DNA of 64,000 nucleotides, taken from the NCBI RefSeq assembly GCF_047511655.1, contig NC_133387.1, positions 139,496,853 to 139,560,852 of the forward strand, read 5' to 3'. This document shows, piece by piece, positions 21,612-51,059 of the stretch (positions are counted from its first letter, which is position 1; each line of letters begins with the position of its first letter). This DNA is from Castor canadensis (lineage: Eukaryota; Chordata; Mammalia; Rodentia; Castoridae). Made by a program: the position numbers and the translations under genes. A model generated the notes under the pieces. The model ran no database searches, was not told where the DNA came from, and worked only from the letters and a program-made list of their open reading frames with translations.

Positions 21612-21920
21612 GAACATTAAATCAAGACAGCCAAGATACAAGTCCAAATTTAAAAGTTGAATAAAAATAATGTTTAAAAACATTAAATCAATGAAATATA
21701 AATAAATAAAAATATAAATACAATGTTTAAAAACCTACTATGGTATAAAGTAAATAGTTTTAAATATAGGATGAAGACTAAACAACAGGGGAGGTTGAAT
21801 ACTTCTCACTCCACAACAGCTCATCTGGGGAAGGAAAGATGGAAATCCCACAAAAGAACCTCCACACCAGAGCAGAGACCAGCAGGACATGGGCTGGACC
21901 AGCCACAGTCAGCCCTGACC

Positions 21921-22837
21921 ATGCTGTATCCCCCTCTGCTGCCACTGTTACTACTTCCAGCTGTGAGTGGAGCCCAGACAACCCGGCCATGCTTCCCCAG
22001 GTGTCAGTGCAAGGTGGAGACATTCGGTCTCTTCTGCAGCTTCAGTCTGCCTCAAGTGGATTGCAGTGGCCTGGGCCCCCACATTGTGCCCTTGCCCATC
22101 CCTCTGGACACGTGCGTCTGGACCTGTCCTCTAACAGTGAATGAGTTGGTGTTGGCAGGGCTGGACTATACTACACTGGCTGGCCTGGAGCTCAGCTATG
22201 ACTTGCTCACCAGCATCTCCCCCACCACCTTCTCCAGCCTTCACTACCTGGAGTCCCTCAACCTCAGCCACAATGATCTGACAGCCCTGCCAGTTGAGCG
22301 CTCCCCTTAAGTGACATGAACCTTAGCCACAATCGGCTTGGGGAGGCCTCAATATCTGCCTTCACTACACACAGCCACGGCCGGGCACTGCACGTGGACC
22401 TCTCCAATAACCTCATTCACCTCCTGGTCCCCTACCCCGCACAGGCTGGCCTGCCTGCGCCCTGCATTCAGAACCTGAACCTGGCCTGGAACCAATCCGT
22501 GCTGTGCCCAATCTCCAAGACCTACCCCTGTGCTACCTGAGCCTGGCAGCCTCTGGCTGCCATTGGCCCAGGTGCCTTCACAGGGGTGGCAGGCCTTACA
22601 CACCTGTCACTAGCCAATCTTCAGTCTCCCCCAGCTGGCGCCCCATGGCTTCTGAGCACTAGGAGGCCTGCAGGTCCTGGACCTGTAAGGCAACCCAAGC
22701 TCAAGTGGGCAGGAGCTGAGGAGTTCTCAAGCCTGAGCTCGCTGGAGGAGCTGAACCTGTCGGGCACCAGCCTGGTACCTCTACCCGAGATGTTGCTCCG
22801 GTACCTCCCAGGGCTACAGAGAGTCAGTGTGGGCAAA
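21921..22837 (+). pseudogene. TSKU: TSKU (Tsukushi) pseudogene, 3'-truncated
   Basis: Tsukushi is a secreted small leucine-rich-repeat protein that acts outside the cell on BMP, Wnt and related signals. From the ATG at 21921 the frame gives a leucine-rich signal peptide ending AVSGAQTTRPCFPRCQC, the N-terminal cysteine cap, then leucine-rich repeats (LESLNLSHNDLTALP, HVDLSNNLIHLLVP, LTHLSLANLQ, LEELNLSGTSLVPLP). It needs at least four frame changes (near 22110-22135, 22300-22315, about 22495 and about 22650) and has in-frame stops at 22308 and 22538. Similarity ends at VSVG near 22837, about 30 codons short of the normal end. The real TSKU coding region lies in one exon, so lack of introns does not prove a retrocopy. 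No A-tail or TSD was found. Identification is by memory of the family. Confidence 0.9.
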
Positions 22838-24110
22838 GCTGAGTCTCATTTAGTTCTTGAAGTCTGCATCTACTTATATTTTCTTCAAAGAAGGACAGTT
22901 TGTCTAATTGCTTTCCAGTGGATCCATCAGCTAATCTATTGACCACTAGTGTCTGGAGGCAATAGAAAAGCAAGTCACCACTATTAGACTGAAGGGTGGG
23001 GTGGAGAGTTTCTAGTAAGTCACCTGTGAGGGGAAAGGTGTCTGTCTGGGCCTAACATGACTGCCCTACATTCACCCCTAACCACCACCACATCTCCAAA
23101 GTTATGAACCAAAAAGAAATTCTGAGGAATGGAGGTATGGTTGAGCCTTCCACAGAAGGACCAAATTGAAGGCAAATCCATGATGTGTAGGATTGTAATA
23201 TTTTCTTTGTCTAAGAAGGGATATATGTTGATTAAGAAATGTTTCATTTTCTCTTTGTCATTACAGGGTTACACAAGAGCTGTCAGCAAAAATGCTTGAA
23301 AAAAATTTCTTCCTGATTTTGTTTATGGTTTTACAAAGACGAATCATATTGACTAGGATAACTTTACCATTGGTGGTCATTTTTTCCTATTTAGCAATGT
23401 TATAATTGGATACATGAGAATGATTCATATGACCATGCTTATATGACAACTAAAGCAGAAAAATAGTACATGAGTCCATGTGGTATAACTTGGCTAGAGA
23501 AATGTATAAATATAAATATAAAATTACAATAGAGGATGAAATTTCCAGTGAGCAAACAATTCTGTGTAACATGTTCAAGGCCAAGAATGCTGTACTCTGC
23601 CATATAGAACTCAGAGGAAGCACAAGTAGATGGACATGAGCGTTTGGAAAGATCTCACTTCAGAAGGATAACAGAGCAGAAGAAATGATATTGGCACCAA
23701 GCAAACTTGACTCTAAAGTCTGGCACTGCCTTTTTTTTTGAGTTTGGACGAATCAGTCACTTGGGAGATTTACTAAAATGGTAATTCTCCCACTTATAAA
23801 AACAAAAACAATGATGACATTGACAACGTCACTTACCATACAGTTACTACAAAAACTGGTGGAATAACAAATGCAGGACACATTCTCAGTAAATGGTAGT
23901 TAGATATGACCAATTAGATCAAAGTACATTTAGATGAGTGTATTCAAATATCACAATGAAACTTTTGTATAATTTAAGTTAATTTAAAAAAGAATAAAAA
24001 GCAACATGAACTCCTTAGATCTAGAAAATAGTTCTGGAAGTGTTTTTAACTACTTGGAGAAGACAATTATTTCCCTTTCACTTCAGATTGCAGAGGTTGC
24101 TAACCAGGCA
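22838..24110. other. Single-copy-like DNA after the pseudogene
   Basis: No gene is seen. Bases 23700-23900 may hold a worn MIR, but I cannot separate this from chance. Confidence 0.4.
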
Positions 24111-25731: not shown

Positions 25732-25823
25732 GAGCCTGGCGGAGTGACTCAAGCAGCAAGAGCACCTGCCTAGCAAGCATGAGACCCTGAGTTCAAACCC
25801 CAGTACCACCAAAAAAAAAAAAA
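25732..25823 (+). mobile_element. Young ID-like SINE with TSD
   Basis: A well-preserved monomer: GAGCCTGGCGGAGTGACTCA, GAGCACCTGCCTAGCAAGC, ATGAGACCCTGAGTTCAAAC and CCCAGTACCACC, then about 15 A. The internal GTTCAAACCCC is a Pol III B-box. The perfect 16 bp TSD shows recent L1-assisted insertion. This copy is the best reference in the window for the family. Confidence 0.95.
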
Positions 25824-27396: not shown

Positions 27397-27411
27397 TGGG
27401 TAATTGTAATT
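27397..27411. repeat. Left TSD of composite L1
   Basis: TGGGTAATTGTAATT is repeated exactly at 36374-36388, nearly 9 kb away, directly outside the two ends of the composite L1. On the minus strand the cut lies between TT and AATT, compatible with the L1 endonuclease preference. Confidence 0.9.
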
Positions 27412-27484
27412 TTTTTAAATTTTATTTATTTATTTATTTATTTATTTATTATTCATATGTGCATACAATGCTTGGGTCATTTCT

Positions 27485-27548
27485 CCCCCCTGCCCCAACC
27501 CCCTCCCTTACCACACACCCCACCCCCTCCCTCTCCCCCCCACCTCCT
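27485..27548 (-). repeat. G-rich polypurine tract of L1 3'UTR
   Basis: C-runs on the plus strand, G-runs on the L1 strand, just before the L1 tail, matching the tract at 10342-10410. Confidence 0.8.
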
Positions 27549-27924
27549 CATATGTGGCAGAAACTATTTTGCCCTTATCTCTAATTCTGTTCAAGAGAGT
27601 GTATAAGCAATAATAGGAAGGAACAAGGGTTTTTGCTAGTTGAGATAAGGATAGCTATACAGGGAGTTGACGCACATTAATTTCCTGTGCATATGTGTTA
27701 CCTTCTAGGTTAATTCTTCTTGATCTAACCTTTTCTCTAGTTCCTGGTCCCCTTCTCCTATTGGCCTCAGTTGCTTTTAAGGTATCTGCTTCATTTCTCT
27801 GCACTGAGGGCAACAAATGCTAGCTAAATTTTTAGGTGTCTTAACCATCTTCATATCTCTCTTGTGGGCTCTCACTTTTATCATGTGCTCATAGTCCAAT
27901 CCCCTTGTTGTGTTTGCCCTTGAT

Positions 27925-30900
27925 CTAATGTCCACATATGAGGGAGAACATACAATTTTTGGTCTTTTGGGCCAGGCTAACCTCACTCAGAATGATGTTC
28001 TCCAATTCCATCCATTTACCAGCGAATGATAACATTTCGTTCTTCTTCATGGCTGCATAAAATTCCATTGTGTATAGATACCACATTCTCTTAATCCATT
28101 CGTCAGTGGTGGGGCATCTTGGCTGTTTCCATAACTTGGCTATTGTGAATAGTGCCGCAATAAACATGGATGTGCAGGTGCCTCTGGAGTAACAGTCTTT
28201 TGGGTATATCCCCAAGAGTGGTATTGCTGGATCAAATGGTAGATTGATGTCTAGCTTTTTAAGTAGCCTCCAATTTTTTTTCCAGAGTGGTTGTACTAGT
28301 CTACATTCCCACCAACAGTGTAAGAGGGTTCCTTTTTCCCCCGCATCCTTGCCAACACCTGTTGGTGGTGGTGTTGCTGATGATGGCTATTCTAACAGGG
28401 GTGAGGTGGAATCTTAGTGTGGTTTTAATTTGCATTTCCTTTACTGCTAGAGATGGTGACCATTTTTTCATGTGTTTTTTGGTCATTTGAATTTCTTCTT
28501 CTGAGAAAGTTCTGTTTAGTTCCCTTGACCATTTCTTTATTGGCTCATTAGTTTTGGGAGAATTTAGTTTCTTAAGTTCCCTATACATTCTGGTTATCAG
28601 TCCTTTGTCTGATGTATAGTTGGCAAATATTTTCTCCCACTCTGTGGGTGTTCTCTTCAGTTTAGAGACCATTTCTTTTGATGAACAGAAGCTTTTTAGT
28701 TTTATGAGGTCCCATTTATCTATGCTATCTCTTAGTTGCTGTGCTGCTGGGGCTTCGTTGAGAAAGTTCTTACCTATACCTACTAACTCCAGAGTATTTC
28801 CTACTCTTTCCTGTATCAACTTTAGAGTTTGGGGTCTGATATTAAGATCCTTGATCCATTTTGAGTTAATCTTGGTATAGGGTGATATACATGGATCTAG
28901 TTTCAGTTTTTTGCAGACTGCTAACCAGTTTTCCCAGCAGTTTTTGTTGAAGAGGCTGCTATTTCTCCATCATATATTTTTAGCTTCTTTGTCAAAGACA
29001 AGTTGGTTATAGTTGCATGGCTTCATATCTGGGTCCCTATTCTGTTCCGCTGGTCTTCATGTATGTTTTTGTGCCAGTACCATGCTGTTTTTATTGTTAT
29101 TGCTTTGTAATATAGTTTGAAGTCAGGTATTGTGATACCATTTGCATTGTTCTTTTGACTGAGTATTACTTTGGCTATTCGTGGCCTCTTGTGTTTCCAT
29201 ATAAATTTAATGGTAGATTTTTCAATCTCTTTAATGAATGTCATTTGAATTTTGATGGGAATTGCATTAAACATGTAGATTACTTTTGGGAGTATCGACA
29301 TTTTTACTATGTTGATTCTACCAATCCATGAGCATGGGAGAGCTCTCCACTTTCTATAGTCTTCCTCAATCTCTTTCTTCAGAAGTGTATCCTTTTCCTT
29401 GTAGAGGTCTTTCACATCTTTTGTTAGGTTTACACCTTGGTTTTTTATTTGTTTTTGAGGCTATTGTAAATGGAATTGTTTTCATACATTCTTTTTCAGT
29501 TTGCTCATTGTTAGTGTATAGAAATGCTAATGATTTTCCTATGTTGATTTTATATCCTGCTACCTTGCTATAGCTATTGGTGATGTCTAGAAGCTTCTGA
29601 GTAGAGGTTTTTGGGTCTTTAATGTATAGGATCCTCTTGTCTGCAAATAGGGATATTTTGACAGTTTTTTACCTATTTGTATTCCTTTTATTCCTTCTTC
29701 TTTCCTAATTGCTCTGGCTAGGAATTCCAGTACTATGTTGAATAGGAGTGGAGACAGTGGGCATCCTTGTCTGGTTCCTGATTTTAGAGGGAATGGTTTC
29801 AGTTTTTCTCTGTTTTTCTGTAGGTTTGTCATATATAGCTTTTATAATGTTGAGTACTTTCCTTCTATTCCTAGTTTTCTTAGAGCTTTTATCATGAAAT
29901 AGTGTTGGATCTTATCAAAGGCTTTTTCTGCATCTATTGAGATGATAAAGTGGTTTTTGTCTTTGCTTCTGTTAATGTGGTTTATTACGTTTATTGATTT
30001 TCGTATGTTGAACCATCCCTGCATCCCTGGGATGAAGCCTACTTGGTCGTGGTGAATATTCTTTTTGATGTGTTGTTGAATTTGGTTTGCCATTATTTTG
30101 TTGAGGATATTTGTGTCAATTTCATTAAGGAGATTGGCCTATAGTTCTCCTTTTTGGAGGTGTCTTTGCCTAGTTTTGGGATAAGTGTAATACTGGCTTC
30201 ATAAAATGTGTTTGGCAGTTTTCCTTCCCTTTCTATTTTGTGGAACAGTTTAAGGAAGGTTGGTATCAGTTCTTCTTTAAAGGTCTGATAGAATTCAGCA
30301 GAGAATCCATCACGTCCTGGACTTCACTTGCTGCTTCAATTTCATTTTGTGTATTAGTTCTATTCATGTGATTAATTTCCTCTTGGTTCAGTTTTGGATG
30401 GTCATATGTATCTAGAAATCTGTCCATTTCTTTAAGATTTTCAAATTTTTTTGAATATAGGTTCTCAAAGTAGTCTCTGATGATTTCCTGGACTTTCATG
30501 GTGTTTGTTGTTATCTCCCCTTTTGCATTACTGATTCTACTAATTTGGGTTTTTTCTCTCCTCATTTTAGTCAGGTTTGCCAGTGGTCTATCGATCTTGT
30601 TTATTTTTTCAAAGAACCAACTTTTTGTTTCATTAATTCTTTGTATGGTTTTTTTGGTTTCTATTTCATTGATTTCAGCTCTTATTTTTATTATTTCTCT
30701 CCTTCTATTTGTTTTGGGATTTGCTTGTTCTTGTTTTTCTAGGAGTTTGAGATGTATCATTAGGTTACTGATTTGGGATCTTTCAGTCTTTTTAATATAT
30801 GCACTCATGGCTATAAACTTTCCTCTCAGGACTGCCTTAGCTGTGTCCCATAGGTGCCAGTAGGTTGTGTTTTCATTTTCATCGACTTCCAGAAACTTTT

Positions 30901-31720
30901 TAATTTCCTCTTTTATTGCATCGATGATCCATTCTTCATTAAGTAATGAGTTATTTAGTTTCCAGCTGTTTGCATGTTCTTTGACTTTACTTTTGTTGTT
31001 GAGTTCTACATTTACTGCATTGTGATCAAGTAGTATGCACAGTATAATTTCTATTTTCTTATATTTGCTGAGACTTGCTTTGTGCCCTAGGATATGATCT
31101 ATTTTGGAGAAGGTTCCATGGGCTGCTGAGAAGAATGTATATTGTGTAGAAGTTGGATGAAATGTTCTGTAGACATCAATTAGGTCCATTTGATCTATTG
31201 CATATTTTAGATCTTGGATTTCTTTATTGATTTATTGTTTGGATGACCTATCTATTGATGATAATGGGGTGTTAATGTCTCCCACAACCACTGTGTTGGC
31301 ATTTATATATGCTTTTAGGTCTTTCAGGGTATGTTTGATGAAATTGGGTGCATTGACACTGGGTGCATACAGGTTGATAATTATTATTTCCTTTTGGTCT
31401 ATTTCCCCTTTTATTAGTATGGAATGTCCTTCTTTATCTTGTTTGATCAATGTAGGTTTGAAGTCTACTTTGTCAGAGATAAGTATTGCTACTCTTGCCT
31501 GCTTTCGAGGGCCATTGGCTTGGTAAATCTTCTTCCAGCCTTTCATCTTTAGCCTATGCTTATTTCTGTCAGTGAGATGGGTCTCCTGTAAGCAACAAAT
31601 TGTTGGATCTTCCTTTTTAATCCATTTCGTCAAGCAGTGCCTTTTGATGGGTGAATGAAGTCCGTTAACATTAAGCGTTAGATTCCTGTCATTTAGTTGT
31701 CTTAGTTGTTTGAAGGTTTG
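27925..31720 (-). pseudogene. L1 ORF2 remnant of composite L1
   Basis: Nearly full ORF2 in pieces. Endonuclease: TLNVNGLHSPIK, then CCLQETHLTDRNKHRLKM with the catalytic-type glutamate in QETH, then VVGDINTPLSSIDRSS (31232-31819). Next come SDHN-equivalent and spacer sequence (30266-31189), RT pieces (29842-30093 with [12 protein letters not shown]; 29587-29832 with [18 protein letters not shown]) and the C-terminus ending FSLICGH (27925-28215). At least seven frame breaks occur, and a short gap at about 30330 removes bases near the conserved PGPDGF segment. Confidence 0.88.
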
Positions 31721-31739
31721 ATTGTGTGTACCTAAGTTG

Positions 31740-32890
31740 AGGTTACTCTCTACTGTCTTGCTTTTTCTTTTCCTGTGGTTTGGTGCTGCCTGTCTTTTCA
31801 TGGTTAAGTCGGGTTTCACTTTCTGTGTGCAGAATCCTTTGAAGAATCCTTTGTAGTGGTGGCTTTGTGGTCACATATTGTTTTAGTTTCTGCTTATCAT
31901 GATAGTTTTGCTGGGTAGAGTATCCTGGGGTTGAAGTTATTTTCATTCGGTGCCTCGAAGATCTCACCCCATGCTCTTCTTGCTTTTAATGTTTCTGTTG
32001 AGAAGTCTGCTGTGATTTTGATGGGTTTACCTTTGTATGTTACTTGTTTTTTCTCTCTTACAGCCTTCAATATTCTTTCCTTAGTTTCTGAACTTGTTGT
32101 TTTAATGATGATATGTTGTGGGGGTAGTTCTTTTGATCTGGTCTGTTTGGTGTCCTGGAGGCCTCTTGCATCTGTATGGGAATATCTTTTTTAGATTTTT
32201 GAAATTTTCCATTATTATTTTGTTAACTGTTTACGCATTCCCTTCGCTTTCACCTCTTCTCCTTCTTTGATGCCCATGATTCTCAAGTTTGGTCTTTTGA
32301 TGGAGTCGGTGAGTTCTTGCTTTTTCTTTTCACTGGTCTTGAGTTGTTTAATTAATAGTTCTTTGGTTTTTCTTTTAATTACAATTTCATCTTCAAGTTC
32401 TGAGATTCTGTCTTCTGTTTGTTCTATTCTGCTGGATTGGTCTTCCATTTTGTTTTGTAGTTCTGTTTCGTTCTTTTTTCTGAGGTTTTCCATATCCTAG
32501 CTGGTTTCCTCTTTAATGTTGTCTATTTTTGTCCTGAGTTCATTTATCTCTTTATTAATTGTGTTCTCTGTTTCACTTTGGTGTTTATACAGTGCTTCTA
32601 TGGTTTCCTTTATTTCTTCTTTTGCTTTTTCAAAGTCTCTATTTTTGTTGTCTTGGAATTTCTTGAGTGTCTTTTGTACATTTTGGTTGACCCTATCCAG
32701 TGTCATCTCTGTAAAATTCTCATTGAGTACCTGTAATATGTCTTCTTTTAAATTATTCTTATGGGCTTCATTGGGTCCTTTGGCATAGTTTATCTTCATT
32801 ATGTTGGCATCTGGATCTGAGTACCTGTTTTCTTCATTCCCTCTGGTTCCTTTACTAATTTTTTGCTTTGGGGAAACTGGTTTCCCTGTT
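31740..32890 (-). pseudogene. L1 ORF1 remnant of composite L1
   Basis: Coiled-coil part at 32497-32799 (NNLKEDILQVLNENFTEMTL) and 32215-32493 (MENLRKKNETELQNKMEDQS, then KRPNLRIMGIKEGEEVKAK). The RNA-binding part follows in broken frames to about 31743. Frameshifts near 32495 and 32215 prevent a full product. Confidence 0.85.
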
Positions 32891-34618
32891 TTTTCTGTCT
32901 TCCCATAATTGTCTTTGGTGTTGTTACTGTCCCTGTACTGTGTGCAATTAAGTATTTTCTAGCTTGTAATAATAACAATGGTAATATTTAGAATGGAAGG
33001 GTGAGCTGAGATGGAAAGCAAGAAGTTAAAGAAATGGGAAAAACAAATACACAGACTGGAGGGAGAAAACAGAACAAGGTATCAGACAAGAAGGTTTCAA
33101 AGTATAAACAGGGAGCTTTAGTGTACTAATTGGACAGTAAGCTGAACAGACATTAGAGAGACAGAGAGAGGATTGAAAATCAAAAATAAAAAAGAAAGAT
33201 AAGAATAAAAATAAAAAATAAGTAAATGAAAGTAAAATCTATATATAAAAATGTATTAAAATAAAATGAAAAAATAGAAAATTTAAAAAAACCAAAAAAC
33301 CAAAAATCCTCCAAGTTCAAATGCAATGAAGTTTCAGTCTTAATAATTTGGGTGTCCAAATAGAAAATTTTAAAAAACCAAAAAACCTCCAAGTTTAAAT
33401 GCAATGAAGTTTCAGTCTTAATAATTTGGGTGTCCATCTCAGTCTCCAATCCTGGAGATAGTGCCTCAGATGTTGTTCTGTAGTTGTCTTATCAAAGGGG
33501 GGATGCATAAAGTAGAACAAAACTACACACACACACGCACAAAAAAAAAACCCCCACCAAGTGTCCCAAGTTCAAATGCAATACAGTTTCAGTAAGTTTT
33601 TCAGCTTGCAGGTGTAATTCAGTTGTTCTCTCATCAAAGGTAGGGAGACAAAGAAAAGAAAAAGAGTCTGGAGACAGTTCTGAGAATGGTATCTGCAACT
33701 GTGGTTTGCCTGCCTGCTGCTGTCAGCCTGCTGTTGCTGGAGGCATTGTTTATGCAGATCTCAGAGGTGAGCTTAGCACTCACCTGGCCCTGCAGGCTTT
33801 GTTTGTTCAGATTTCTCCTGTGCGTGAGCCTCTGCTACAAACTTTCCCCTTTCCAAGCACTGGAAAAGGTGACATTGCACCCGCATTCTCAGGCCAGTGT
33901 ATTTATTTACAGTTCATGTAGGAGGTGGGTCTTCCCCTCCTCCTGTGCAGTTCTCCTCCCACCTCCGCTTTCACAAGCTTTCCTGCTCCTGATTACTGGG
34001 CGGTGCTGCTGCTCCTGCCAGCCGCCATGTTTGTTTACAGCTCACGTGGGAAGTGGGTCTTCCCTCCTCTCCTGTGGAGTTTTCCTCCCTCTGCCACTCT
34101 CACAAGGTTTCCCGCTCCTGGTTGATGGGCACACGCCCCCGCTCCTGCCAGAGGCTCTCCGGCCAGACTGGCTTGTTTATTTACAGTCCCAGGAAGGATT
34201 CCCTTCCCCCAATCTTTGGCACTCAAGGTGCCCCACCTTCTTTCCTGGGTGTCTTTATCATTCTTATTGCTTATTACTCAGTTTCTCTTTTTTTCCCCAG
34301 GTGGAGGTTGGTCTGTCCAGGGGGCTATGCTGCTTTGGCCCAGGCTTGCCTGTGGGAGTACCATGGTACCACAAAGCTCACCTGGTCCGCATCTTCCCAA
34401 GCCGTCTGGGCGCTGGCCACTGGTGGCCCGGAGGCTCTCTTGATTTCTCCTTTTAATGTGAAGTGGAGATTCTCTGCGCTGGCTGGAGGTGTGGAGGGGT
34501 CAAAGTTATGCCTCTTCTCAGTGATTATGCCTGCAAAGTGTGTCTCCAGCGTCTCTCCAAGATTTCCCTATAGGAGGCTTGCTTTCTACTTCCTCCCTCT
34601 AGCCGCCATCTTGGAATC
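32891..34618 (-). promoter_or_regulatory. L1 5'UTR (inner L1 of the composite)
   Basis: A complete 5'UTR of about 1.7 kb starting with CCAAGATGGCGGC, which contains a YY1-type core (CAAGATGGC) as in primate L1 promoters. It still carries the intron-like segment 33630-34381 (donor ACCAG|GTGAGC, acceptor GATGAG|AGAAC), the about 130 bp repeat units at about 33900-34190, and an 86 bp direct duplication (33272-33436). Promoter function is inferred from L1 biology. Confidence 0.8.
33272..33436. repeat. 86 bp tandem duplication in L1 5'UTR
   Basis: The block AAATAGAAAATTT ... AATTTGGGTGTCC at 33272-33357 is repeated from 33358 to 33436 with a small deletion. The L1 at 58829 has a single copy of the matching segment (about 60025-60075). 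Confidence 0.85.
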
Positions 34619-35848
34619 CTCTCAAGTTTGGTCTTTTGATGGAGTTGGTGAGTTCTTGCATTTTCTTTTCACAGGTCTTGAGTTGTTTAATTAATATTTC
34701 TTTGGTTTTTCCTTTAATTGCCATTTCATCTTTGAGTTCTGAGTTTCTGTCTTCTGTTTGTTCTATTCTGCTGGATTGGCCTTCCATTTTGTTTTGCAAT
34801 TCTGTTTCATTCTTTTTTCTGAGGTTTTCCATATCCTGGGTCGTTTTCTCTTTAATGTTGTCTATTTTTGTCCTGAGTTCATTTATCTCTTTATTAATTG
34901 TGTTCTCTGTTTCACTTTGGTATTTATACAGTGCTTCTATGGGTTCCTTTATTCCTCTTTTGCTTTTTCAAATTCTCTATTTTTGTTGTCTTGGAATTTC
35001 TTGAGTGTCTCCTGTATATTTTGGTTGACCCTATCCAGTATCATCGCTCTAAAATTCTCATTGAGTACCTGTAGTATGTCTTCTTTTAGATTATTCTTAT
35101 GGGCTTCATTGGGTTCTTTGGCATAGTTTGTCTTCATTTTGTTGGAGTCTGAATCTGAGTATCTGTTTTCTTCATTTCCCTCTGGTTCCTGTACTAAATT
35201 TTGCTGTGGGGAAACTGGTTTCCCTGTTTTTTCTGTCTTCCCATCATTGCCTTTGGTGTTGTTATTGTCCCTGTACTGTGTGTAATTAGGTATTTTCTGG
35301 CTTATAATAATAGCACTAGTGATATTTAGAATGGTAGGGTGGGAGGAGAAGGAAAGCAAAGAAGTTAATGGAAAAGGGAAAAACAAATAAAGAAGTAGAA
35401 AAAAAAACAGAACAAAGAAACAAACACAAAAATATTCAAAGATTAAAAACAGGGAGAGACAGTGTACTAATCAACCGTAAGCTGAAAAGGCATTAGAAAG
35501 ACAGAGAGAGGATTGAAAATAAAAAATAAAAAGAATAAAAGTACGAATAATAATAAAAAATAAGTAAATGAAAAAAATATATATATAAAAATAAAATAAA
35601 AAATGAATAATTAAAAAAAATCTCCAAGTTCAAATGCAATAAAGTTTCAGTCTTAATAATTTTGGTGTTCATCCCTCAGCATCCAATCCTGAAGATGGTG
35701 CCTCAGTTGTTGTTCTGTAGTCTCATCAAAGGGGAAAAATAAACTAGAACAAAACCACACAAAGCAAAAGAAAAAAAAACAACCAAGTTCAAATGCAATA
35801 CAGTTTCAGTAAGTTTTTCAGCATGCAGGTGTAGTTCAGTTGTTTTCT
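34619..35848 (-). mobile_element. Upstream L1 segment: 5'UTR and first part of ORF1
   Basis: A second, partial L1 of the same family lies 5' of the complete one. ORF1 coiled-coil sequence is open at 34599-34832 (ENLRKKNETELQNKMEGQSS) and 34949-35386 (NNLKEDILQVLNENFRAMI). It stops in ORF1 at KRPNL, where the 5' end of the inner L1 starts. At that junction the ORF1 strand reads AAAAGACCAAACTTGAG and then runs into the L1 start. A TSD beginning AAAA would look exactly like this if the inner L1 once inserted into ORF1 of the outer L1 at the source locus. Confidence 0.8.
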
Positions 35849-35952
35849 CTTGTCCACATCTTCCCAAGCCATCTGGGCGCTGGCGTCTGGCGGTGGCCTG
35901 GAGGCCCTCCTGGTTTCTCCATTCAATGTGAAGTGGAGCTGCTCTGTGCAGG
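35849..35952 (-). mobile_element. L1 5'UTR exon joined by splicing on both sides
   Basis: This 104-base segment matches 58971-59076 of the plus-strand L1 and 34382-34482 of the inner L1. Its upstream edge lies just after the ACCTCCAG acceptor of the L1 5'UTR, and its downstream edge just before the GTGAGC donor. In the other two copies the flanking L1 sequence is still present at both edges. Both edges therefore look like splice junctions. Confidence 0.85.
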
Positions 35953-36373
35953 CTGCTTTAATTTCTTTTTCCTCCTTGCATCTCTTCAGATTTTCTACTC
36001 TTGATTAATCAGTGTGGAGATTCTCAACACCTGCAGCACACATGGGTTGGAAGTTCTGCAGAACTACAAACAAAGACAGGAGGGCTCTTTAAATAAATGC
36101 AATGAACTTCCCAGGGTGATCTAAGGTGCCTCTTTATCATGACATTGGAGGGCTCTCCATCTAACTGCTGGTCTTGCTCATGTGTCCTGAAGCAAAGCTC
36201 TCCTTCCACTTGACACTGAGGGCTTCCAATAGTTTCCAGTCAGGAGAGAAGCAGGATAAAAAAGGATCCAGGCATTCTGCAATAATCCAGGAAGTTCAAT
36301 ATGACACTAAATAAAAATTCTGCCGCCTCGCCACCTTGCGGAGCCTGGGCTGCCGGCGTGCAGCGCTACTCCC
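35953..36373 (-). other. Transduced non-L1 exon sequence (host 5' exons?)
   Basis: About 421 nt inside the TSD but unlike any L1 5'UTR. On the minus strand the first 53 bases (36373-36321) contain six CpGs and are GC-rich, like a CpG-island first exon; the rest is ordinary composition. It ends AAATTAAAGCAG at the join to L1. CAG also occurs near 36320 and 36278, so two or more source exons are possible. A 61-codon frame (36024-36209) has no known motif. I cannot name the source gene. It may be a 5'UTR or a long non-coding RNA. Confidence 0.75.
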
Positions 36374-36388
36374 TGGGTAATTGTAATT
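36374..36388. repeat. Right TSD of composite L1
   Basis: Identical to 27397-27411. Confidence 0.9.
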
Positions 36389-50510: not shown

Positions 50511-51059
50511 TTCTTTGTAAGTGACCAGAAATCAAAGCAGATGGCAGCTACCAAAGGCTAAAATCCTGAAGGAATATTTTGGTTGTCTGTGCTGCTGGGA
50601 ATATAAACACTGGTATTCAGGACACTTGAAATAGAAAACTCCAATGAAATACCTCAGGTTTTCAATAAAGATTCTAAAAGAGCTATACTCAAAATAAGGG
50701 CAGATAAAAACAGACCACCTAGACTAGATCAGTGTGATTTGCTCATGTGATATGCCTGCTTAGAAAAAAGAAGAACCCCTGGCAATGGGCAAAGAGACAC
50801 CTCATTGGTGGTGTTCCTCTTATATCAGTCAGGGGCAAAGTAGATTACAGTACTTTGTTCATCCTAGCTTGATGCCTGGATCAGTGGCCAAAGCTGTTTC
50901 ATGCCTAGGGCACAAAATAAAAAAAAAAGAAAAGAAAAAAGAACAATTAAATCTTCTGTGGAAAATGAAGACATCGTTCAAAGACCCCTTTCAGATATTA
51001 GGCCTAGCCCTCAAACCTTACTAGATACATCATAAAGCAAAAAAATTCCAAGGGACTTA
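50511..51059. other. Unassigned sequence with an A-rich stretch
   Basis: An A-rich run at about 50915-50945 could be the tail of a short retroposed piece starting somewhere after 50700, but I see no TSD or known family. Confidence 0.35.

What the first reader, a model, noticed from the sequence alone, without database searches (positions are those of the whole stretch)
27397..36388. A 9 kb L1 insertion carrying a spliced host-L1 chimeric 5' end
Seen: one 15 bp TSD (TGGGTAATTGTAATT) bounds 27412-36373. On the minus strand the block is non-L1 sequence, L1 5'UTR exon, spliced L1 5'UTR and partial ORF1, then a complete L1 with A-rich tail. Known: L1 5' transductions and host-L1 chimeric transcripts occur but are rare. 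Inference: a host promoter upstream of a nested L1 pair produced a spliced RNA that ended at the inner L1 poly(A) site, and this RNA was retrotransposed whole.
Basis: partly seen in the sequence, partly recalled or inferred. Interest (0 to 1): 0.88.

Follow-up and report, generated by a model that had tools for sequence, protein, structure and literature searches.

The report
Gene exons carried by double L1
A jumping gene copied itself to a new chromosome together with four spliced exons of a host gene and part of a second jumping gene, all in one insertion: a rare but known kind of event that shows how such elements can pick up pieces of host genes.

Summary
Window 27412-36373 (minus strand) is one 8,962-bp L1-type insertion with a perfect 15-bp target-site duplication. 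Its 5' 421 bp are not L1. They are four spliced exons (52, 67, 230 and 70 nt; the last without differences) from contig C5 of the same genome, colinear over 65 kb, with splice sites that fit GT-AG. They lie upstream of PKIG coding exons, so I read them as PKIG 5'UTR exons (name from a recalled peptide plus synteny). Exon 4 joins exactly at a splice acceptor present in 28 of 28 L1 5'UTRs examined. A second, intra-5'UTR splice follows, then cut-off ORF1, then a complete second L1 starting at the family's usual first bases. So a spliced host-L1 RNA was retrotransposed. A lost nested source and a template switch between two L1 RNAs both remain open. The kind is known: 17 such chimeras are reported in the human reference (PMC13174262). 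Four exons plus two L1s in one insertion is a new variant.

The parts
36374..36388 (-). 5' copy of the 15-bp target-site duplication (AATTACAATTACCCA on the minus strand)
   Evidence: the preceding bases TATT/AATT make a plausible L1 endonuclease site (consensus recalled). The last 4 bases (CCCA) also precede the matching place in PKIG exon 1, so the 5' join has 4 nt of microhomology
36320..36373 (-). PKIG exon 1 (GC-rich), matches C5:166940682-166940733
   Evidence: followed by donor GGCAG|gtgagc at the source; 2-nt insertion in this copy
36253..36319 (-). PKIG exon 2 (67 nt), matches C5:166991658-166991724
   Evidence: acceptor ccctAG, donor |gtgag at the source
36023..36252 (-). PKIG exon 3 (230 nt), matches C5:166992062-166992291
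   Evidence: acceptor catag, donor |gtgag; its last base differs between source and copy
35953..36022 (-). PKIG exon 4 (70 nt, no differences), matches C5:167005501-167005570
   Evidence: acceptor ccttag, donor AAGCAG|gtaggt
35849..35952 (-). L1-A 5'UTR exon (104 nt), bounded by acceptor and donor of unspliced relatives
   Evidence: AG directly before it in 28 of 28 relatives; GTGAG 0 or 3 nt after it in 26 of 28 (L007 has ATGAG, L003 is itself spliced)
35245..35848 (-). L1-A 5'UTR downstream of a removed intron of about 600-750 nt
   Evidence: intron present in 26 of 28 relatives (297 nt in one, otherwise 597-752; no match in L003 and L017). An AG stands directly before the joined base in only 3 of 26 (L016, L018, L020) and in L1-B; in most of the others the AG lies 2 nt further in, so the acceptor is placed to within 2 nt
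34620..35244 (-). L1-A partial ORF1, stops in mid frame at the junction with L1-B
   Evidence: 92-94% identical to the same part of L1-B in the ungapped blocks
34620..34637 (-). possible internal target-site remnant of L1-B in L1-A: CATC/AAAAGACCAAACTTGAGA
   Evidence: 5 of 6 bases of TTAAAA, 18 nt before the join; 12% of positions along the L1-A segment do as well, and 23% have AAAA at such a distance, so weak
27412..34619 (-). L1-B, complete from the usual 5' start to the A-rich tail; 5'UTR 34619-32907 unspliced, ORF1 from 32906, ORF2 with endonuclease part; reading frames now broken
   Evidence: (Pfam Exo_endo_phos 1.1e-12 for 31232-31819)
27412..27461 (-). 3' (AATAAA)n A-rich tail
27397..27411 (-). 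3' copy of the 15-bp target-site duplication

Best explanation
One target-primed reverse transcription event copied a spliced RNA that began at the PKIG promoter. PKIG 5'UTR exon 4 was spliced to the acceptor in the 5'UTR of an L1 (A) in the same orientation. A second intron was removed inside that 5'UTR. The RNA then ran through part of A's ORF1 into a complete L1 (B) that lay inside A, and ended at B's poly(A) site. L1 machinery inserted the copy on contig C2. Shown: one TSD around the whole, the host exons in spliced order, both L1 splice joins, and B's complete 5' end. Inferred: that A held B as a nested insertion; that the pair sat in the PKIG intron after exon 4 (at most 33 kb) on an allele since lost (cis-splicing) rather than being reached by trans-splicing; and that proteins were probably supplied in trans, since B's ORF1 would begin about 3.5 kb from the RNA's 5' end. 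The core (single insertion of a spliced PKIG-L1 RNA) I put at about 0.93; the nested source as the origin of the A-B join at about 0.5.
For: TSD at the outermost ends only. Four exons colinear on C5 with introns of about 51 kb, 0.3 kb and 13 kb that fit GT-AG, ending at a donor, upstream of PKIG coding exons on the same strand. The exon-L1 join falls at an acceptor present in 28 of 28 relatives; the internal join falls at the donor (GTGAG in 26 of 28) and within 2 nt of an acceptor, with the intron still present in 26 of 28. One relative, L003, joins the same donor to another acceptor, an independent spliced insertion. B starts where other copies start: GGATTCC or AGATTCC at that point in 19 of 31 copies compared, the rest diverged or starting a few bases later. 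A TC/AAAA site lies 18 nt upstream in A, as a nested insertion could leave. A and B look like different L1 lineages, most clearly in the 5'UTR. A (end branch 0.029), B (0.038) and the host exons (K2P 0.052 against PKIG, both sides together) have similar ages.
Against: No young sense L1 in the intron after exon 4 in this assembly. In the fetched stretch beyond it (to C5:167090000) the only sense copy that matches well is a 5'-truncated piece at 167081046-167082898, 89%. No other copy of the A-B junction at up to 3 mismatches for a 40-mer or a 35-mer. A 28-mer gave nine further places, all with 3 mismatches; in eight of nine all mismatches lie in the flank part, as chance flanks would give. My estimate is that such searches would find a surviving source about 70-85% of the time. 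A shows no extra decay over B, so B would have to have entered A shortly before the event. The EN-like site is weak (12% by chance).
Confidence: 0.5

Rival explanations
1. Template switch. The reverse transcriptase copied an ordinary L1-B mRNA to its very 5' end, then jumped to a second RNA, a spliced PKIG/L1-A RNA ending in ORF1, and copied that. No nested L1 pair ever existed as DNA.
For: The join is exactly at B's usual 5' start; no nested source recognised in the genome or in the PKIG intron; A and B equally undecayed. B as normal mRNA would keep cis preference. Template switching is a published route to L1 chimeras (PMC13174262).
Against: The acceptor RNA needs a 3' end in mid ORF1 without a poly(A) trace; the join has no untemplated bases and at most 1 nt of homology; the EN-like site at 18 nt would be coincidence.
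Confidence: 0.35
2. Trans-splicing. PKIG pre-mRNA exon 4 was joined to the acceptor of an L1-A(-B) RNA transcribed from a different locus. This concerns only the exon 4-L1 join and overlaps with the other explanations.
For: No young sense L1 in the PKIG intron. The authors of PMC13174262 say that 15 of their 17 gene loci lack an intronic L1 and suggest recombination in trans for them. Exon 4 is followed by a long intron (up to 33 kb).
Against: A lost polymorphic intronic L1 explains the absence as well; one human case (RAP1GDS1) has its intronic source. No nested A-B source was recognised elsewhere either.
Confidence: 0.35
3. Stepwise. A PKIG/L1-A insertion came first, B later jumped into it in place, and recombination between the 3' parts of A and B deleted the rest.
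For: Each step is of a common kind (recalled); TSD and junctions would look alike.
Against: Needs three events. B matches the intron-4 L1 more often than L1-A's 5'UTR relative up to ins 6,400 (where that copy leaves the window), and more often than a third L1 over its whole length; the ratio varies from 1.2:1 to 7:1 but never reverses. A and B are alike in age.
Confidence: 0.08
4. Chance or assembly artefact, or a segmental duplication mistaken for an insertion.
For: None found.
Against: Exact TSD, spliced exons, splice-site joins and an A-rich tail agree.
Confidence: 0.02

Closest known systems
mRNA/LINE-1 chimeric insertions by 5' transduction (Law and Burns 2026, PMC13174262; sections 13 and 14 and part 1 of 15 read, other passages)
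   Same: First exons of a gene, sense, in part of the cases spliced at a donor to a near full-length L1, with one TSD and an A tail; long introns often follow the last exon; intronic source L1 usually absent.
   Different: There 17 cases in the human reference, with two or three exons in the examples I read; here another, unnamed mammal, four exons, an extra intra-L1 splice, and a second complete L1 in the same insertion.
RAP1GDS1-L1PA2 chimeras (same paper, section 14)
   Same: Host promoter and exons spliced ahead of an L1 with a spliced 5'UTR.
   Different: There the acceptor lies 15 bp upstream of the L1, the intronic source survives and two independent offspring exist; here the acceptor is inside the L1, and neither a source nor a sibling was found.
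SpIREs, spliced integrated retrotransposed elements (Larson 2018, PMC5860796; part 1 of the discussion and passages read)
   Same: L1-A carries an intra-5'UTR splice using the L1's own donor and acceptor.
   Different: Here the splice accompanies host exons and a second L1; donor, acceptor and intron (about 600-750 nt) belong to this species' own L1 5'UTR.
SVA_F1 (MAST2) and pt_SVA_D6 (STK40) (PMC6139936; passages only)
   Different: Those expanded to 84 and 94 copies; this one is a single copy as far as searched.

Membership tests
mRNA/L1 5'-transduction chimera | non-L1 sequence and L1 inside one TSD, with A tail | tested here: met
mRNA/L1 5'-transduction chimera | 5' part maps to the first exon(s) of a gene, sense, ending at a splice donor | tested here: met
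   gene name from a recalled human peptide and synteny; that exon 1 is the gene's true first exon is inferred
mRNA/L1 5'-transduction chimera | block arrived at one time (empty site in relatives) | not testable with these tools
   no related mammal genome is held for search (output)
SpIRE | L1 5'UTR lacking an intron bounded by GT and AG in unspliced relatives | tested here: met
   (for L1-A; L1-B is unspliced); acceptor placed to within 2 nt
Nested L1 pair as RNA source | DNA copy of the A-B junction, B with its own TSD inside A | tested here: inconclusive
   not found; unspecific; a lost or diverged source cannot be excluded
Expanding composite family (SVA_F1-like) | several copies with the same host exons | tested here: not met
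   41 matches (40 of 2318 first-look candidates scored); only the block itself and C5 (exons 2 and 3) hold host exon sequence; a search with the host exons alone did not complete, and short pieces could be missed
Processed pseudogene of PKIG | spliced mRNA with the coding exons, to the gene's own end | tested here: not met
   the host part stops at exon 4 and L1 follows; the coding exons lie further down on C5

The most novel reading that the evidence does not exclude
Three-way RNA recombination: a PKIG pre-mRNA spliced, perhaps in trans, to one L1 RNA, and the L1 reverse transcriptase jumping onto that chimera after finishing a second, different L1 mRNA, so that the compound never existed as DNA before this insertion.
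Probability: 0.3. Interest if true: 0.75.

Novelty: new variant of a known kind. Interest (0 to 1): 0.58.

Why it matters
A census of host mRNA/L1 chimeras in the human reference came out in 2026 (PMC13174262), and most of its gene loci lack an intronic source L1, so whether these form by cis-splicing, trans-splicing or template switching is open. This one, in another mammal, carries a second mark, the L1-A/L1-B junction, which a nested DNA source must share and a template switch must not. That makes the question directly testable in other individuals and relatives of this species. It also shows that an L1 5'UTR with an acceptor and a donor around a 104-nt exon can act as a ready-made splice cassette for host transcripts.

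Tried and rejected
Rejected: the 421 nt as normal L1 5'UTR; the TSD as part of a larger duplication; a plain PKIG processed pseudogene (exons stop at 4); L1-A and L1-B as one RNA read twice (their 5'UTRs differ: 83% in the 104-nt exon); a later nested insertion with deletion (no reversal along B). The tree has only seven rows and no inner branch reaches the tool's mark; the pairing of B with the intron-4 L1 has 94/95. In one search B's 5'UTR is only slightly nearer to that L1 than to the window's L1 at 58.8-63.4 kb. The 28 relatives are not all independent: L018/L019, and L025/L026, share upstream flank.

Led nowhere: a 24-mer junction search gave 189 hits, 100 of them listed, which looked like chance L1 flanks. 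Genome searches for the host exons alone and for other copies of the 5'UTR splice join did not complete (20 calls). Searching PKIG with LINE-1 in the held papers gave one listing, by title unrelated. Among the titles listed (some lists capped) I saw none on a host-exon chimera with a nested L1 pair; only open-licence papers are held.
Full report
What is there. On the minus strand, window 36373-27412 is an insertion of 8,962 bp bounded by a perfect 15-bp direct repeat that occurs nowhere else in the window. The flanks otherwise share only chance short matches. The 3' end is an A-rich (AATAAA)n tail. Inside, the first 421 nt are not L1. A 104-nt piece of L1 5'UTR follows, then later L1 5'UTR and ORF1 sequence that breaks off in ORF1, and then a complete L1.

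Host exons. The window's own genome (2.81 Gb, window at C2:139496853-139560852) is held and was searched. The first search (41 matches; 40 of 2318 candidates scored) placed two pieces of the 421 nt on contig C5 besides the block itself; the other 38 matches were L1 5'UTR. With 200 kb of C5 fetched, all 421 nt mapped as four colinear plus-strand pieces: 52 nt at 166940682, 67 nt at 166991658, 230 nt at 166992062 and 70 nt at 167005501 (boundaries). The three introns are about 51 kb, 0.3 kb and 13 kb and fit GT-AG; the last piece ends at AAGCAG|gtaggt. The last base of exon 3 differs from the present gene. Over 419 aligned sites there are 15 transitions and 6 transversions, 6 of the changes CpG-type, plus a 2-nt insertion; K2P 0.052. 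Exon 4 has no differences. A recalled human PKIG peptide finds two coding pieces downstream on the same strand, C5:167038578-167038727 (96%) and 167042649-167042744 (72%). TTPAL- and SERINC3-like frames lie upstream (names recalled). So the block carries what I read as PKIG 5'UTR exons 1-4. The 5' end has 4 nt of microhomology (CCCA) with the target, so exon 1 may be cut short there.

Splice joins in L1. In 28 of 28 L1 relatives the place where the host sequence ends is preceded by AG, mostly as CACACCTCCAG. Directly after the 104-nt exon, 26 of 28 read GTGAG 0 or 3 nt on; L007 has ATGAG, and L003 is joined directly to a later acceptor and is itself a spliced insertion. The intron missing here is present in 26 of 28 relatives, 597-752 nt long and 297 nt in one; L003 and L017 gave no match. 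A point against perfect fit: an AG stands directly before the joined base in only 3 of those 26 (L016, L018, L020) and in L1-B; in most of the others the AG lies 2 nt further in (GATGAG|AAAAC), so the acceptor is placed to within 2 nt and L1-A must have had the variant. A few relatives are duplicates of one another. I read these joins as splice joins, not truncation.

The L1-L1 join. L1-B begins at GGATTCCAAGATGG directly after L1-A's ORF1. Of 31 copies compared, 13 start with the same first base at that point, 6 with AGATTCC, and the rest have diverged or start later, each with its own flank before it. In its 5'UTR A is nearer to the window's L1 at 58.8-63.4 kb than to the other copies compared; B is nearer, though in the 5'UTR only slightly, to an antisense L1 in the PKIG intron. 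B keeps that affinity along its length, from 1.2:1 to 7:1 at informative sites without reversal. In a seven-row tree of an ORF1 part the end branches are 0.029 (A) and 0.038 (B), so A was not a long-dead copy when the RNA was made. An endonuclease-like site, CATC/AAAAGA, lies 18 nt before the join; 12% of positions along the L1-A segment do as well, and 23% have AAAA at such a distance. That is weak support for B having been inserted in A.

Search for the source. Between exon 4 and the coding exons (33 kb) there is no young sense L1, only a full-length antisense L1 (167019025-167026693) and old fragments; no run of N falls in it. Further down, to C5:167090000, the only sense copy that matches well is a 5'-truncated piece at 167081046-167082898, 89%; C5 beyond that was not read. 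The L1-L1 junction was searched genome-wide in four answered calls. A 40-mer and a 35-mer with up to 3 mismatches found only the block. A 28-mer found the block and nine places with 3 mismatches, in eight of which all mismatches lie in the 13 flank bases. A 24-mer gave 189 hits, 100 listed, too many to judge. From the branch lengths I estimate roughly 70-85% power. So the source is absent, lost, diverged, or never existed as DNA.

Mechanism. The core is firm: a spliced RNA from the PKIG promoter, joined to L1, was copied in one target-primed event. How B came to be joined to A is not settled: a nested source since lost (about 0.5), a template switch from B's RNA to a PKIG/L1-A RNA (about 0.35), or later steps in place (about 0.08). 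Whether exon 4 met L1-A in cis or in trans is also open.

Literature. Law and Burns 2026 (PMC13174262; sections 13 and 14 and part 1 of 15 read, passages) report 17 such insertions in hg38, with two- and three-exon examples, most gene loci without an intronic L1, and RAP1GDS1 with one. Larson 2018 (PMC5860796; passages, part 1 of the discussion) defines spliced L1 insertions. SVA_F1 and pt_SVA_D6 (PMC6139936, passages) are expanded counterparts. Nothing that I read describes a host-exon chimera that also holds two L1s; only open-licence papers were searched.

Judgement. A real and well-preserved example of a known kind, with a new combination: four exons, two splice joins in L1, and a second L1. 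Its value is that the L1-L1 junction gives a test between the proposed mechanisms.

Noticed in passing
L003 (C2:124406171-124406274 with 1.5-kb flanks): An independent L1 with a spliced 5'UTR: same donor joined to a different acceptor nearer ORF1, a SpIRE-like insertion in this species.
   Followed up: partly
window 21723-22900 approx.: TSKU-like leucine-rich-repeat sequence in broken frames (Pfam LRR_8), probably a processed pseudogene; name recalled.
   Followed up: partly
window 50774-50917: SNORA48 match (Rfam, 87 bits) followed by an A-rich stretch, probably a retrocopy of the snoRNA.
   Followed up: no
window 25738-25811: Weak tRNA-family match (32.9 bits) not called by ARAGORN; possibly a tRNA-derived SINE.
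   Followed up: no
C5:167019025-167026693 (L037-L038): Full-length antisense L1 in the PKIG intron after exon 4, the nearest relative of L1-B over most of its length among the few copies compared.
   Followed up: partly
window 33629-34619: L1-B's own 5'UTR keeps the same acceptor, donor and intron unspliced, so only the first L1 was spliced.
   Followed up: yes
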